Shown here: one piece after another, positions 12,028-24,636 of the stretch
Numbering within the stretch: the stretch's first letter is position 1
Layout of the letters: the number at the start of each line of letters is the position of its first letter
Source of the DNA: Bacillus sp. 123MFChir2
GTDB lineage: Bacteria; Bacillota; Bacilli; Bacillales; Bacillaceae_G
NCBI RefSeq assembly: GCF_000383235.1
Contig: NZ_KB910934.1
Span: forward strand, 32,159-96,158
Direction of reading: 5' to 3'
DNA length: 64,000 nucleotides
Program-made: the position numbers and the translations under genes
The notes under the pieces: generated by a model
Told to the model about the DNA's origin: nothing
The model's database searches: none
Seen by the model: only the letters and a program-made list of their open reading frames with translations

Positions 12028-12792
12028 ATGAATACATCAGAAGTAGAAAAATATGCACAGCAAGCTGCAATGTATGAGCAACTTGCTTGTTATTACAAAT
12101 ATACAAATCCGCAAAAATATATAGAAGTATATTTAAAACACTATGAGGCGATGAAACAATTTGTACAAGCTTACGAGAAAAGCCGTGTATCACCACCACA
12201 TTCAAGCGAACAATCCTTACCCTCTTACGTTCGAATCTTACACGCTTCTCCTGATTCATCTGCTATTGATATTGTTATAAATGGACAAAAAGTAGTTAAA
12301 AACATTTCGTTTAAGCAATATAGTCCATATCTTTCACTTACACAAGGGCAATACCGCGTTGATATCGTACCTGCTGGCGGGGAAACTCCTATCTTTTCAA
12401 CCCTCGTTCCTGTAATGGGAAATCATGCATATACTCTTGCTGCAATTGGTAATGCTGATAAACTGCAACTGTTAAATTTAACCGATAATACACCCCTTCC
12501 ATTCGGACAAGCAAAAATACGATTCGTTCATTTGTCTCCTGATGCACCTCAAGTAGATGTATCTTTAAAGGATGGAGAAAAGCTGTTTGAAAAAGTTTCA
12601 TTCAAACAAGCAACAGATTATTTACAAGTGAGTCCTGGTGTAGCAGATATAGAAATAGCTGATGCGGGAACAAAAAACGTTATATTAACAATTCCTGAAG
12701 TGAAAATTGAGGCAAATAAAATTTATACAATTATTACACTTGGCTATGTAAATAAATCCCCGAAATTGGAAAGTTTATTTTTGACAAATTAA
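12028..12792 (+). CDS. DUF4397 domain protein
   Basis: A 254-residue protein with a helical N terminus (about 1-50, rich in Tyr/Gln) and two DUF4397 repeats. The first starts SYVRILHASPDSSAIDIVI (about 66) and the second AKIRFVHLSPDAPQVDVSL (about 162); each contains a VSFKQ/ISFKQ and a DIEI/DIVP strand. No signal peptide is seen. In bacilli such proteins are often spore-associated, but the function is unknown. AGAGGAGG precedes the ATG. Confidence 0.85.
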   Translation: MNTSEVEKYAQQAAMYEQLACYYKYTNPQKYIEVYLKHYEAMKQFVQAYEKSRVSPPHSSEQSLPSYVRILHASPDSSAIDIVINGQKVVKNISFKQYSPYLSLTQGQYRVDIVPAGGETPIFSTLVPVMGNHAYTLAAIGNADKLQLLNLTDNTPLPFGQAKIRFVHLSPDAPQVDVSLKDGEKLFEKVSFKQATDYLQVSPGVADIEIADAGTKNVILTIPEVKIEANKIYTIITLGYVNKSPKLESLFLTN

Positions 12793-17947: not shown

Positions 17948-18439
17948 GTGGAGTATAAAACGCCGATGATTGCCAAAACGTTAGGTATTAGTCCAAAAGC
18001 TGTTATCCGTCTTGCACAGCAAATCGGATTAGAGTTAAAAAAAAATAAATTTGGCCACTATGTTTTTTATGAAAAGGATTTACAGCAAATGCTTGATTTT
18101 CAGCGCTCTGCACCAAGTCATAAACATGAACCAGCTTCCTATCATGCTGCTGAAGCAGCACCGTCAAATGAAATACAACAATTTATAAAAGAATTAAAAC
18201 ACATTTCCTTACGTTTAGATCGGCTAGAAGAAAAGTTACAAGACAAAGCAGATGATGTTGTAAGTTATCAGTTGTTACAACACCGTAATGAAATGGAAGA
18301 AATGCACGCAAAAATTAACCAATTAGAAACAGCACTTAACCGAAAAGAATCAATCTATATTACACCAGAAGTGGCCGCAGCAAAACAAGAAGAAAAACCA
18401 AAGCGCCGTAAAATGATTTTAAGCATTTTTGGATTTTAA
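17948..18439 (+). CDS. racA: Chromosome-anchoring protein RacA
   Basis: A 163-residue protein: MerR-like helix-turn-helix (about 5-50, KTLGISPKAVIRLAQQIGL), linker, coiled coil (about 85-140) and a basic amphipathic C terminus (KRRKMILSIFGF) that fits membrane/DivIVA contact. RacA binds origin-proximal DNA and tethers the axial filament to the cell pole during sporulation. GTG start after AGGAGGGG. It is shorter in the linker and considerably divergent from B. cereus RacA as remembered. Confidence 0.92.
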   Translation: MEYKTPMIAKTLGISPKAVIRLAQQIGLELKKNKFGHYVFYEKDLQQMLDFQRSAPSHKHEPASYHAAEAAPSNEIQQFIKELKHISLRLDRLEEKLQDKADDVVSYQLLQHRNEMEEMHAKINQLETALNRKESIYITPEVAAAKQEEKPKRRKMILSIFGF

Positions 18440-19878: not shown

Positions 19879-20475
19879 TCATCTTGTTAACATAATATTT
19901 TTACTGCCTTCTTTAATCAATGTTTGTGCATGTGCATTTCCTTGAATCACATCACGAAATTCTTTCAAAGAATACATATGCGTCAATCCTTTCATAACAT
20001 GAATACAAACTGGTACACCTTGTAGTTCATCATTAACAGTAAATACATCATCGATAGGCTCTATCGGGAATCCTAATGAACGTAAGTACATATACATACG
20101 CTTTGTTACAACTGCAATATACCACTCTGCTTTTACCTCTAATGCATGTATAAATAAAATCGTCGCAAGTTGCTTAAATTGTCCACGACCGCGAGATGTT
20201 TTCGCAATACTTAATTTTCCAATTTCGTATACATTTTTTAATCCTTTTATATATTCATTTTCAGAAAATGGATAAAAAAACTCGGAATTTGATTGTTCAG
20301 GTGTTTTATATTGTATGCATTCAACAGTTCCAATATAATGATTATCTTCTATCAATAAAAATCTTGATGGTGTTAAATTTCTTTCTACAAACATTATGTT
20401 TCGTTCTTCACAAAAATCTCCCCATAATTGCTCGAACCAAAAATGTTCTTCCTTTGTTTGAACACGTTGGAACAT
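19879..20475 (-). CDS. GNAT-fold acyltransferase, function unknown
   Basis: A 198-residue protein. The acetyl-CoA/ACP-binding loop SRGRGQFKQLATIL is near residue 95, preceded by YEIGKLSIAK. The layout recalls the N-acyl amino acid/autoinducer-synthase-like branch of GNAT proteins rather than simple N-acetyltransferases (inference). It lies downstream of the McrBC-like cassette in the same direction, 171 bases away, behind a hairpin repeat, so it is probably separate. Confidence 0.65.
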   Translation of the reverse strand: MFQRVQTKEEHFWFEQLWGDFCEERNIMFVERNLTPSRFLLIEDNHYIGTVECIQYKTPEQSNSEFFYPFSENEYIKGLKNVYEIGKLSIAKTSRGRGQFKQLATILFIHALEVKAEWYIAVVTKRMYMYLRSLGFPIEPIDDVFTVNDELQGVPVCIHVMKGLTHMYSLKEFRDVIQGNAHAQTLIKEGSKNIMLTR

Positions 20476-20598: not shown

Positions 20599-20656
20599 GA
20601 AACCTCCATCAGTGCGGATTTTCTTAATTCCTCACTGATGGAAGTTTCACTTTATC
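20599..20656. repeat. CCATCAGTG hairpin repeat at the 3' end of mcrC
   Basis: GAAACCTCCATCAGTGCGG pairs over 19 bases (two mismatches) with CCTCACTGATGGAAGTTTC. It covers the stop codon of the McrC-like gene and may serve as its terminator. Same repeat theme as near 820, 5919 and 45681. Confidence 0.7.
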
Positions 20657-22494
20657 CCCGCTAACCAGTGCTGCAAGATATTTATTAGTTCTTTTTTTCC
20701 CGCTACCCTCTCTTTGCCTTTTTTTGTTTTATACGGATACAATTGTAAAAATACACCGCAACCTGTTTCAATTTTTTTCGCATGCATATTACTACCTGGA
20801 TATACACATATAACTTCATAAATTGCACGGCGGTGAAATAAGCGTTTTCCATTTTTCTCTTCTACATATTTAATTGACCAATATTTATACATCTGCTCAG
20901 TTGCTTTCGTATTTCCAACTGGTTGAAAAATGTTATACATTGGACTATATTTTACTTCAACTATAATAGATGATTGATATTCATAGGCAGTTTCCCCTTG
21001 TTTATAACAATCAATACGAATATCTGGTTTTTTTGTATCCTCTCCATTATAAAATTGACTCTGTTTACTGAGCGCAATAAGCGGATGCGTTTCAATTAAA
21101 TCATTAAATACTACATGCAACTGTAAATCTTCGTCCTCCAACACAATTGTTGTACCATCTTGTAAACCATCTAAATAAAAATACGATTGAATTTGCTCTG
21201 CAATTGACATGTAATCGTTAAAACCAAGTTCTTGTAGAATTGCCACAACAGTAAAGTAGGCATAATACTCATAAATTAAAAATGTCGGCTTATAAACAAA
21301 TAGAAATGATGGTTCTAATTCATTACGATGTGGCGAGAATTCAAGCTGATATAATAATTGATGGTATACAGGAGGCATCGAATGTGTTGTAAGTGTAATT
21401 TCTTCCCGAATCTCTCTCCAAAACGGCGTATATAAAAGGCTTGAAAAATATGTTAGTGTACTTTGCAAAATTGTATAAAGCACCTTATATTCTTGAATTT
21501 TCATAGCCATTTTGCGTAAGTCTGTGTCTTTTAACAAATTCATGTTACGATATTTTTGTTTGTCTCGTTCCGTCACAGAACCATTTCGCTCAATTGTTTG
21601 TAAAATTGTATGCACTGCTTTTTTCTCGTCTCTTCGCGTTTGCTGTGCCCTCTCTAATTTCTGAATCGTTTCGCGCAAAAATAAATCAATTTCTAATAGC
21701 TGATTGTAAAACAACTTCGTCTTATATTTTACATAGCCATTCACTTTATCATGCTTTTTCTCTACAAAACGGCGATTATACCATTTTTCATACGGTTTTT
21801 TCTCGCGTATAATAGTGCTCTTTCTTCCCTGCTTCCTCTCCCGCATTTCCCATATATACTCATCTTCAAAATTTACTTTTTGCTGCACTTCATAATATAA
21901 CTGCTTTATTTTTTTCATTTTTTGCGGCAACATCCGGAGCATACGCATATATGAATAATCTTCAATATCTGCAAATGTAACAAATGTCTTTTTATAATAT
22001 CCTCGATCTAAAATGATCCCACTTAGCACAGACTTTACATATTGCTGAATTAACTCTAATTGATCATCAAAAAAATTTTTCGGAACGATTTGAAATGCGC
22101 CGTAAAACAACTCTTCTCCAATCTGCACTTCAAAATGATATACACCGCAGCGCCACGGATATAAATAATCCGTTTTTCCATGCTCATACAGTAAAATAGT
22201 ACGTTGTTTTTCATGCAGTTCATATTTCCATTCCATATGTTGCTTTTGTCCTTCGTATACTTTATTCCAAATAAACGTAATCTTTATTGGATATTGTGAT
22301 TGTATATGTAGCCGAAGCGGTTTTAACTCTTGTACTTTGTACACACACGACGAAATCGTAATGGGTGAAGCGCAAAGCTTATTTAATACTATATGTTCTC
22401 CCTTCTCTTCTGCCCCTACTATAACTTTCAATACAAACGGAAGCTTCTCTCCTGTTTCTATAATTTCTGTCTCATACGTGCTTTCATTTAACAT
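20647..22494 (-). CDS. McrC-like protein: DUF2357 plus PD-(D/E)XK nuclease
   Basis: A 615-residue protein. The N-terminal ~190 residues are beta-rich (DUF2357-like). Residues ~190-345 form a long, highly charged helical/coiled segment. The C-terminal domain is a PD-(D/E)XK nuclease with PDIRID (Asp491), IIVEVKYSP (Glu513, Lys515) and a downstream Q in TEQMYKYW. Classical McrC is about 350 residues, so this is a large variant with an expanded stalk. It overlaps the McrB-like gene by 11 bases. Expected role: nuclease subunit of a type IV-like restriction or anti-phage complex. Alternative: a housekeeping DNA-repair pair. Confidence 0.82.
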   Translation of the reverse strand: MLNESTYETEIIETGEKLPFVLKVIVGAEEKGEHIVLNKLCASPITISSCVYKVQELKPLRLHIQSQYPIKITFIWNKVYEGQKQHMEWKYELHEKQRTILLYEHGKTDYLYPWRCGVYHFEVQIGEELFYGAFQIVPKNFFDDQLELIQQYVKSVLSGIILDRGYYKKTFVTFADIEDYSYMRMLRMLPQKMKKIKQLYYEVQQKVNFEDEYIWEMRERKQGRKSTIIREKKPYEKWYNRRFVEKKHDKVNGYVKYKTKLFYNQLLEIDLFLRETIQKLERAQQTRRDEKKAVHTILQTIERNGSVTERDKQKYRNMNLLKDTDLRKMAMKIQEYKVLYTILQSTLTYFSSLLYTPFWREIREEITLTTHSMPPVYHQLLYQLEFSPHRNELEPSFLFVYKPTFLIYEYYAYFTVVAILQELGFNDYMSIAEQIQSYFYLDGLQDGTTIVLEDEDLQLHVVFNDLIETHPLIALSKQSQFYNGEDTKKPDIRIDCYKQGETAYEYQSSIIVEVKYSPMYNIFQPVGNTKATEQMYKYWSIKYVEEKNGKRLFHRRAIYEVICVYPGSNMHAKKIETGCGVFLQLYPYKTKKGKERVAGKKELINILQHWLAGIK

Positions 22495-24292
22495 AACCGT
22501 ATAACTCCAACTCTCGCCGTTTTTGCTTCATATACAACAGCGAGTGTTCAAAAGTTGATACACGATTTGCAAGTGATGATTGCAATAATTGTACAAGAGA
22601 CACTTCTTTTTTCCCCTCTTCCCGAAGCAATGTCCCTATTGTAGCTTCTGTACCACGTAACTTCGTTAAAATACGTTGTTTTATTTGTAAATCAAATGCT
22701 TCTTCACGGCTTATTAATAAAATTCCCCCTTCATCACATGGTATATTTTGTAAATAATATGCAATTGCTGAGGCAACGCGAAAAGAGATCCCTTTGGACG
22801 CATCGTGAAGAAATAACAGCTGATGCATTTTATCTAATAACTCCACTTCTTCTTCTGTAAACACATTAAGCATTTCCTTGTGTTGAACCCAGTTCATTCG
22901 AAATTCTAGAGCTGGAATAGAAAATGCAAATGGACGTGGTAGCGCTTTTCTCTCAATCATACTCATCTCACAAAATGGAATTTTTTGAAGGAATACAACA
23001 TTCACACGATCCAATAAACGGTCGGATAACTCTTTTGTTGTTTCATCAAAATTAACTGTACCCACAAAAATGATATTATCACCAATTTCTATTTGTGATG
23101 GCACATCTTGCTCTTTTCCATTTTCCGCTGCATACAAAGATAAAATACGATTTTTCCGTTCTAACTGTAGGAGTGATAAAAAAGGAGTAAACCAATGTTC
23201 AATATATGACAAATTCATTTCATCAAATGCAATTATATATAATTGATTTGGATTTTCCGCTGCTTCTAAAAGAGTTCGAACAAGTTTTGTTTCACTTTCC
23301 ATATATGTTCCATTTGAATGGAGATAACCTAGCACATCATGGGGTTCTTGATAGGATGGTGAGACTGGAACCCAAATGAACTCTTTCCCAAATGCTAATC
23401 CGAGTGCTTCCGCATAAGCTTGAACAAACTGTGATTTCCCAATTCCAGGCATACCACCTACTATTGTTAATAAATTTGTCTTCACACAAATATGAAAATT
23501 GTAAATATCACTTTCATCAATATATAATTCTTTTTCTGCGAGAATTTGCTTCACATATTGTATAAAAGAATATTCACGTTCATTCCATACCTTTTCTTTT
23601 TCTTGTTTGCTTGTATCGATAATTTCAATTATTTTTCCGTTCTCTTTTATTTGTTTTTCTAATCGTTCATATACTTCTGTTCGAACAAAAAATAAGCTAT
23701 TCTCAACATTCATATCGACATACTGCACCCAATCATCAATATCAAGGTAACGAACATCCCTTCCCTGCTCTCGATATGCAATGGCACTAATAGAATGCTT
23801 TAAAGTTACATTTCCATATATCCTTCCTTCATACCATAACAACTCTGGTACACCAAGATCATGCGGGAATTTTGGTACTAGAAATGAAACATATCCTTTC
23901 CCAAGTTTTCTTTCAAATACTTCTCTTTCCTTTAAGACTGATAGTTTAGGCGAAGGGATCATTTTATAGGAATTTGCTATGTCTTGTTCCTCACAACGTA
24001 TTAGTTCTGCATATAAATTGCCACTTGTATAAGAAAGTCGAAATAACAACAGCTGTTTTTCTCGGTTTCCTTCTTTTATACTCGCAAAAAATTTTTCATT
24101 TTGTTTATTTTTATATAAACCCTCAAAGATATAACAACCATCTCCAAAAGCTGCCTCGATTATGTTAGGGATTGGTGAAAGACAAACGACAAAAAATGAT
24201 TCTTTCTTCTGCTTTTCTGCGAATTTCCCGACAAAACGCATATGCTGCAATCTCTTTATAAAGCTTGGATGAAGAGGTTTCTCTAATTTCAT
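22484..24292 (-). CDS. McrB-like AAA+ NTPase
   Basis: A roughly 600-residue protein. Residues 1-270 are a unique, unrecognised N-terminal region, the position of the substrate-recognition domain in McrB. The AAA+ module follows: Walker A GGMPGIGKS (~280-288), the McrB-typical QEPHDVLGYL (~316-325), Walker B IIAFDEMN (~353-360), sensor GTVNFDET (~411-418) and arginine finger DRLLDR (~424-429). E. coli McrB has GTMNTADRS at the sensor, so nucleotide preference may differ. The ATG at 24292 follows GAAGGTGA. First gene of the cassette; it feeds the nuclease gene by overlap. Confidence 0.85.
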   Translation of the reverse strand: MKLEKPLHPSFIKRLQHMRFVGKFAEKQKKESFFVVCLSPIPNIIEAAFGDGCYIFEGLYKNKQNEKFFASIKEGNREKQLLLFRLSYTSGNLYAELIRCEEQDIANSYKMIPSPKLSVLKEREVFERKLGKGYVSFLVPKFPHDLGVPELLWYEGRIYGNVTLKHSISAIAYREQGRDVRYLDIDDWVQYVDMNVENSLFFVRTEVYERLEKQIKENGKIIEIIDTSKQEKEKVWNEREYSFIQYVKQILAEKELYIDESDIYNFHICVKTNLLTIVGGMPGIGKSQFVQAYAEALGLAFGKEFIWVPVSPSYQEPHDVLGYLHSNGTYMESETKLVRTLLEAAENPNQLYIIAFDEMNLSYIEHWFTPFLSLLQLERKNRILSLYAAENGKEQDVPSQIEIGDNIIFVGTVNFDETTKELSDRLLDRVNVVFLQKIPFCEMSMIERKALPRPFAFSIPALEFRMNWVQHKEMLNVFTEEEVELLDKMHQLLFLHDASKGISFRVASAIAYYLQNIPCDEGGILLISREEAFDLQIKQRILTKLRGTEATIGTLLREEGKKEVSLVQLLQSSLANRVSTFEHSLLYMKQKRRELELYGYVK

Positions 24293-24359
24293 CTTGCTCA
24301 CCTTCTTTTTCCGATGCTTTTATCATTGTATGAGTAATAAAAGCAAACTAGAAACAAAA

Positions 24360-24382
24360 AACCTGACACTTATTGTCAGGTT
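24360..24382 (-). terminator. Terminator overlapping end of the 24.4 kb small gene
   Basis: AACCTGACA/TGTCAGGTT stem followed by TTTTTT on the minus strand. The TGA stop codon of the upstream small gene is in the 5' arm. It separates that gene from the McrBC-like pair. Confidence 0.85.
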
Positions 24383-24636
24383 GAATGAAATCCTTCTTTT
24401 TCTTGAGAAATTGCGTTGTGAGCAATCTTCATTTTCGTTAGGACATAACGTAATGTATCTTCTACATTCTTATCTTCTTGTATGTGCATATTAGCTAAAA
24501 CTTCTACAGAACATGCTAAATTTTCTACCGCTCCACGTAGTTCGGGGTGTCGATTAAAGAACGATTCTTGCACTAATAATTTTCGGACGTCTATTGCTAA
24601 CTCTACAATTCTCACTAATTTTTCCTTTTCTTCCAT
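24376..24636 (-). CDS. Small helical conserved protein, 86 aa
   Basis: An 86-residue, mostly helical, acidic protein with no membrane segment and no domain I recognise. Features include IVELAIDVRKLLVQ and LRGAVENLACSVEVLANMHIQ. A good AGGAGGGG site precedes the ATG. It is upstream of the McrBC-like pair in the same direction, but an intrinsic terminator at its stop codon argues against a shared operon. Confidence 0.7.
   Translation of the reverse strand: MEEKEKLVRIVELAIDVRKLLVQESFFNRHPELRGAVENLACSVEVLANMHIQEDKNVEDTLRYVLTKMKIAHNAISQEKEGFHST

What the first reader, a model, noticed from the sequence alone, without database searches (positions are those of the whole stretch)
20647..24292. Unusual McrBC-like two-gene cassette with an enlarged nuclease subunit
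Seen: a McrB-like AAA+ protein (GGMPGIGKS, LGYL, IIAFDEMN) overlaps by 11 bases a 615-residue DUF2357/PD-(D/E)XK protein with a ~150-residue charged helical insertion. The first 270 residues of the ATPase match no domain I know, and the sensor is GTVNFDET instead of McrB's GTMNTADRS, so NTP choice may differ. Known: McrBC proteins restrict modified DNA, and related two-gene cassettes are common in defence islands. Inference: this is a divergent type IV or abortive anti-phage system.
Basis: partly seen in the sequence, partly recalled or inferred. Interest (0 to 1): 0.75.

Follow-up and report, generated by a model that had tools for sequence, protein, structure and literature searches.

The report
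Fixed McrBC-like nuclease, perhaps sporulation-linked
Two overlapping genes encode a probable motor-driven nucleic-acid cutter of the restriction-enzyme kind that, unlike its scattered relatives, sits at one unchanging chromosomal spot in the related species examined and may be switched on when the cell makes a spore.

Summary
The two genes are real. They are the CnuB/CnuC pair of a CoCoNuT (McrBC-family) system and fit the "Pseudo-Type I-B CoCoNuT" of Bell et al. 2024, which lacks CnuA: the kind is in print. The organism is Ectobacillus-like, not B. cereus.

Added here: (1) both genes are in 19 of 19 genomes of the family, at one syntenic site in the 18 neighbourhoods read; matches elsewhere in the order are patchy (25 of 288). 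(2) All 21 non-family loci read have a CnuA-size gene beside cnuB; none of the 18 family loci does. (3) Active-site residues are kept in all family rows; dN/dS is the lowest of seven genes compared. (4) A stalk-tip motif TxRxKxKY is in 19 of 19 family nucleases and 0 of 21 others. (5) A sigma-E-type promoter is conserved upstream (z 8.5) but not before cnuA elsewhere.

Inferred: a mobile restriction-type nuclease became a core locus, perhaps made in the sporulating mother cell. Target unknown; no experiment was done.

The parts
20647..22494 (-). cnuC (McrC-like nuclease, 615 aa): beta-rich N terminus about 9-137, helical stalk/hairpin about 250-354, PD-(D/E)XK domain about 431-615
   Evidence: (mean pLDDT 50, boundaries approximate)
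22484..24301 (-). cnuB (McrB-like NxD NTPase); likely start ATG at 24292
22484..22494 (-). 11-base overlap of the cnuB end and the cnuC start
23594..24292 (-). CnuB N-terminal region of unidentified fold, presumed target reader
   Evidence: no credible Pfam or PDB match; homologous region present in three-gene relatives
23432..23455 (-). Walker A (residues 283-290)
23042..23053 (-). NxD signature N417-E420
21550..21573 (-). stalk-tip motif TxRxKxKY (residues 308-315), found in the two-gene clade only
20950..21027 (-). PD..ExK catalytic residues (490-515)
24325..24353 (-). sigma-E-type promoter TTCTAGTT-N13-CATACAAT
24360..24382 (-). terminator-like hairpin between the upstream small gene and the cassette (not part of the cassette)
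   Evidence: 3 such sites found, 2.2 expected
19879..20475 (-). GNAT-like gene, conserved neighbour (16 of 18 family loci); weak, sub-cut-off Pfam match to FeeM
17948..18439 (+). racA-like (MerR-type) neighbour; the name is my reading, not a database hit

Best explanation
The cassette is a Pseudo-Type I-B CoCoNuT: CnuB (NxD-type McrB NTPase) and CnuC (beta-rich N terminus, helical stalk, PD-(D/E)XK nuclease) without CnuA. By homology to McrBC (inferred), CnuB forms a ring that hydrolyses nucleotide when the CnuC stalk activates it and brings the CnuC nuclease to nucleic acid chosen by the unidentified CnuB N terminus. Shown here: the CnuA-less form is one clade nested among three-gene relatives; it is present at one site across the family, with intact active sites, strong purifying selection and its own stalk-tip motif. 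Inferred with moderate support: it has a sigma-E-type promoter and so is made mainly in the sporulating mother cell, where it either protects the sporulating cell from invading nucleic acid or cuts the mother cell's own.
For: NxD followed by E, no CnuA beside it and a GNAT next door match the printed description. Both genes in 19 of 19 family genomes; racA-like neighbour in 17 of 18 and GNAT in 16 of 18 loci read. CnuA-size gene beside cnuB in 21 of 21 non-family loci read and in none of 18 family loci. Family clade support 98/95. Catalytic residues identical in all 19 family rows. Median dN/dS 0.036 and 0.040 in 11 second-lineage loci, lowest of seven genes. Tip motif 19 of 19 against 0 of 21. 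Sigma-E z 8.5 at the cassette with at most 1.8 for seven other factors there; at four neighbour genes sigma-E z is at most 1.0 (2.2 with the weighted score). Top of 14 gene starts in the second lineage; no signal in 22 cnuA upstream regions.
Against: Sigma consensuses are recalled; rows are related, so z is inflated. The window's site alone is reached by 5% of plain shuffles and ranks 3 of 44 gene starts. G019 (L032) does not fit the promoter pattern. The sigma-E -10 overlaps a passable sigma-A -10. The term search of a B. anthracis sporulation Tn-seq paper found no mention of McrB or AAA (PMC12700454, passages only), though racA was missed by that screen too. A review says that the B. anthracis type IV enzymes may act on methylated DNA in transformation tests (PMC4722110); if its McrB3P is this CnuB, some vegetative activity exists, and it lists a frameshifted homologue in one B. 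cereus strain.
Confidence: 0.6

Rival explanations
1. A resident modification-dependent restriction system, active in growing cells against methylated phage or plasmid DNA, that happens to be stably inherited.
For: Intact PD-(D/E)XK and NTPase residues; PADLOC candidate match PDC-M26A; McrB as the only PDB match. PMC4722110 calls McrB3P the most ubiquitous type IV gene of the B. cereus group and reports that such loci may restrict methylated DNA. The cassette lies 0.41-0.43 of the chromosome from dnaA, near where I would place BA_2283 from its number (recalled gene count).
Against: That McrB3P is this gene is not shown: its quoted 76% identity to B. cytotoxicus does not match my deepest second-lineage row (65-67%), and that row's species is unknown. 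Such fixation and low dN/dS are unusual for restriction genes (general knowledge). Sigma-E-type promoter.
Confidence: 0.25
2. An overcrowding or quorum stress effector, as Bell et al. 2024 propose, with the GNAT neighbour as synthase of a signal.
For: GNAT neighbour in 16 of 18 loci; weak Pfam match to FeeM (E 8.5e-4, under cut-off). In the order sample the 9 strongest GNAT matches (E under 1e-80) all lie in family genomes.
Against: GNAT is missing beside the cassette in L003 and L030 while the cassette stays; GNAT's own start shows no sigma-E signal (z 0.8).
Confidence: 0.1
3. A mobile abortive anti-phage island.
For: Three-gene relatives are patchy (25 of 288 non-family genomes) and occur on plasmids with a cnuA-like gene.
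Against: Both genes in 19 of 19 family genomes with conserved neighbours; no relative found in the phage collection or among viral contigs.
Confidence: 0.05

Closest known systems
Pseudo-Type I-B CoCoNuT (Bell et al. 2024, eLife, PMC11090510; sections 7 and 8 read)
   Same: CnuB/CnuC pair without CnuA, NxD motif, Bacillus-type host, synthase-like neighbour gene
   Different: The sections read do not mention a fixed site across a family, the tip motif or a promoter; their supplements were not seen, so identity rests on features, not on a shared accession
Type I-B CoCoNuT (cnuABC)
   Same: Homologous CnuB and CnuC over their length, overlapping gene order
   Different: Has a CnuA gene, is patchy, includes plasmid copies, lacks TxRxKxKY and shows no sigma-E-type signal upstream of cnuA
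E. coli McrBC
   Same: AAA+ core (E 7e-4) and a two-gene McrB/McrC arrangement
   Different: NxxD motif, methylcytosine-binding N terminus, McrC without the beta domain (as told in PMC11090510); canonical McrC PF10117 is in 1 of 19 family genomes

Membership tests
CoCoNuT / NxD clade of McrB | NxD signature instead of NxxD | tested here: met
   N417-x-D419-E420 in all 19 family rows
CoCoNuT / NxD clade of McrB | Place in the CoCoNuT GTPase phylogeny | tested here: inconclusive
   Groups with cnuABC-type relatives, but no reference CoCoNuT accessions were in the tree
Pseudo-Type I-B CoCoNuT | CnuB/CnuC without CnuA | tested here: met
   No CnuA-size gene beside cnuB in 18 loci; CnuA found in 1 of 19 genomes, at a separate cnuABC locus; a very divergent CnuA elsewhere is not excluded
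Pseudo-Type I-B CoCoNuT | Neighbouring quorum-hormone-synthase-like gene | tested here: met
   GNAT with a weak FeeM match beside it, 16 of 18 loci; that it makes a signal is untested
Type I CoCoNuT CnuB | Cold-shock/OB-fold and often YTH-like N terminus | tested here: inconclusive
   No credible Pfam or PDB match; model too poor (mean pLDDT 43)
Type I CoCoNuT CnuC | Ig-like N-terminal beta-sandwich | tested here: inconclusive
   Strands at about 9-137 in a weak model; Foldseek lists Ig domains among other folds, none at E under 0.001
McrC | DUF2357 plus PD-(D/E)XK | tested here: met
   By homology: E 2e-15 to a DUF2357 protein, Pfam DUF2357 in 2 of 3 three-gene relatives scanned, catalytic residues intact; no direct Pfam hit in the window protein
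Type IV restriction | Cleaves modified DNA | not testable with these tools
   Needs an assay
Sigma-E regulon | Sigma-E-type promoter in front of the operon | tested here: met
   Sequence signal only; G019 (L032) does not fit
Sigma-E regulon | Expression in the mother cell that depends on sigE | not testable with these tools
   Needs a reporter or RNA data

The most novel reading that the evidence does not exclude
A mobile restriction-type nuclease (Type I-B CoCoNuT) lost its CnuA component once, gained a sigma-E promoter and a new stalk-tip contact, and became a core part of the sporulation programme of a whole bacterial family, acting in the mother cell on invading or on the mother cell's own nucleic acid.
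Probability: 0.42. Interest if true: 0.82.

Novelty: new member of a known kind. Interest (0 to 1): 0.6.

Why it matters
Restriction-type systems are generally gained and lost quickly (general knowledge). A catalytically intact McrBC-class nuclease that is fixed, under strong purifying selection and apparently tied to spore formation would be a clear case of defence machinery turned into a developmental function. It also gives the printed overcrowding guess a rival that one reporter experiment can test.

Tried and rejected
Small ORF 24376-24636 as a third component: rejected. It is found in 46 of 299 genomes of the order, 42 of them outside the family, lies about 5 kb from the cassette in G019, and is followed by a terminator-like hairpin.

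GNAT as an obligate partner: weakened by its absence beside the cassette in L003 and L030.

A CnuA borrowed from a second system: found in 1 of 19 family genomes. The CnuA profile also fails on some genes in the cnuA position (L080 E 1.4; L094, L096 and L097 not listed; L095 E 0.014), so a very divergent CnuA elsewhere is not excluded.

Folds: two AlphaFold jobs on four sequences each gave mean pLDDT 43 and 50; one Foldseek search of the CnuC model gave nothing at E under 0.001. Not pursued.

Phage and viral copies: none in the phage collection for the nuclease and none among viral contigs for either profile.

Rows dropped or not seen: of 25 non-family genomes with a match I fetched 19; G029, G074, G109, G131, G209 and G259 were not looked at. 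G013 was judged from a short contig and is not among the 18 neighbourhoods. L090 was left out of the tree. The L088 nuclease fragment was left out of the residue and motif counts. L034 was left out of dN/dS, and L034 and L038 out of the second-lineage promoter set. Saturated pairs were left out of dN/dS (ATPase 9 of 55, nuclease 15 of 55, GNAT 1, g14368 9). The promoter tests used at most 11 representative rows.
Full report
OBSERVATION. The ATPase matches PADLOC candidate PDC-M26A (E 1.5e-34) and, in the PDB, only McrB (E 7e-4). The nuclease has no Pfam, NCBIfam or PADLOC hit of its own. It matches a RefSeq DUF2357 protein on a Priestia plasmid (E 2e-15), and 2 of 3 three-gene relatives scanned pass the Pfam DUF2357 cut-off.

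WHERE IT IS. The nearest named relatives are three Ectobacillus species (53-58%), two of them with the same GNAT, Hcp and racA-like neighbours; the third lacks GNAT and Hcp there. The window is therefore Ectobacillus-like. No genome is held for it. In the family of E. panaciterrae as the tool groups it, 19 of 19 genomes carry both genes: five at 54-59% and fourteen at 34-37% nuclease identity. In the 18 neighbourhoods read, a racA-like gene lies on the cnuC side in 17 (one contig ends first) and a GNAT gene in 16. Canonical McrC (PF10117) is in 1 of 19.

RELATIVES. Of 299 genomes drawn from the order, 36 match the nuclease profile: 11 of the family and 25 others. I read 19 of those 25 and two plasmid loci. 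All 21 have a 346-456-aa gene that overlaps the cnuB start or ends within 20 bases of it, the CnuA position of Type I-B CoCoNuTs. A profile from nine of these genes and L045's recognises most of the others, but L080 not at all and L095 only marginally, and L094, L096 and L097 were not listed. None of the 18 family loci has such a gene, and the profile's best hit among their ORFs is E 0.054. G019 has both: the fixed pair and a separate complete cnuABC (L045). CnuA was found in no other family genome. In the ATPase tree (40 rows) the 19 two-gene rows are one group at 98/95 among three-gene rows. One loss of CnuA is the simplest reading; an unrooted tree does not prove the direction.

CONSTRAINT. 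Walker A and B, N and D of NxD, the arginines checked and the PD..ExK residues are identical in the 19 family rows. In 11 second-lineage loci the median dN/dS is 0.036 (ATPase) and 0.040 (nuclease), against CNNM 0.058, GNAT 0.062, g14368 0.067, racA-like 0.126 and g12028 (8 loci) 0.314 (Nei-Gojobori, saturated pairs dropped). Across genera the proteins are nevertheless divergent (33-37% identity). Some groups of the nuclease tree recur in a flanking-gene tree (quick method, partial). In the helical hairpin all 7 invariant columns of 105 lie at 308-322. TxRxKxKY there is in 19 of 19 two-gene and 0 of 21 three-gene nucleases. PMC11090510 says that the McrC stalk activates McrB, so a role of this tip in activation or substrate guidance is a guess.

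PROMOTER. A terminator-like hairpin follows the upstream small gene (24382-24360). About 40 bases before the cnuB ATG is TTCTAGTT-N13-CATACAAT. Three rows of the Ectobacillus lineage have CATACAAT, two CATATAAT and L031 CATATAAA; the second lineage has TCATAATT-like, N13, CGTAAAAT at the same distance. Against eight recalled sigma consensuses, up to 11 representative rows give z 8.5 for sigma-E at the cassette and at most 1.8 for any other factor there. At four neighbour genes sigma-E gives at most 1.0 (2.2 with the weighted score), while racA-like gives sigma-H 4.8 and CNNM sigma-A 3.9. In the second lineage the cassette has the highest sigma-E value of 14 gene starts (8.6; next 4.3 and 3.0), and 22 cnuA upstream regions show none (z 1.4; 0.4 in the seven nearest). 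Against this: related rows inflate z; the window's site alone is reached by 5% of plain shuffles and ranks 3 of 44 gene starts; G019 (L032) does not fit. The spacing agrees with mapped B. subtilis sigma-E promoters, and sigma-E and sigma-K share their -10 (PMC517825, legend passage and section 14 read).

WHAT IS KNOWN. Bell et al. 2024 (PMC11090510; sections 7 and 8 read, other passages by term search) define NxD McrBs, CoCoNuTs and, in one paragraph, Pseudo-Type I-B in many Bacillus species: a Type I-B relative without CnuA near a quorum-hormone synthase, guessed to act in overcrowding stress. Their idea that it may still use the CnuA of a co-resident Type I-B system is not borne out in 18 of 19 family genomes at the sensitivity used. 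PMC4722110 (section 4 part 1 and passages read) lists B. anthracis type IV genes, says that they may act on methylated DNA, and calls McrB3P (BA_2283) homologues the most ubiquitous. Whether that is this cnuB is open: the position fits (0.41-0.43 from dnaA; the gene-number estimate is recalled), the identities do not settle it, and a frameshifted strain is listed. PMC12700454 (passages): no mention of McrB or AAA in a B. anthracis sporulation screen. Searches for McrB/McrC or DUF2357 with sporulation, for defence with mother cell, for McrBC in the B. cereus group core genome and for Pseudo-Type I-B listed no paper that I recognised as linking this system to sporulation; this is judged from listings in an open-access library.

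VERDICT. A new member of a known kind. Four points were not in the sections I read: the fixed site across a family, the consistent lack of CnuA there, the tip motif, and the sigma-E-type promoter. Mother-cell function is inference.

Noticed in passing
L002 13343-14683: The racA-like gene of Ectobacillus funiculus holds a long run of near-identical in-frame repeats (SSTIEEPHSVKTQG), ten or more copies, between its HTH and its C terminus.
   Followed up: no
L045 7693-9588 (G019): The separate three-gene Type I-B CnuC has Arg where the catalytic Lys stands in the other nucleases checked.
   Followed up: partly
L088 (G088): Type I-B nuclease gene in two parts about 9 kb apart on opposite strands, a rearranged copy.
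   Followed up: no
window 12028-12792: Gene with the best sigma-E-type promoter score of 44 gene starts in the window.
   Followed up: no
window 17948-18439 and orthologues: Upstream regions of the racA-like gene carry a sigma-H-type signal (z 4.8).
   Followed up: no
window 24376-24636: Small helical protein of unknown function, in 46 of 299 genomes of the order.
   Followed up: partly
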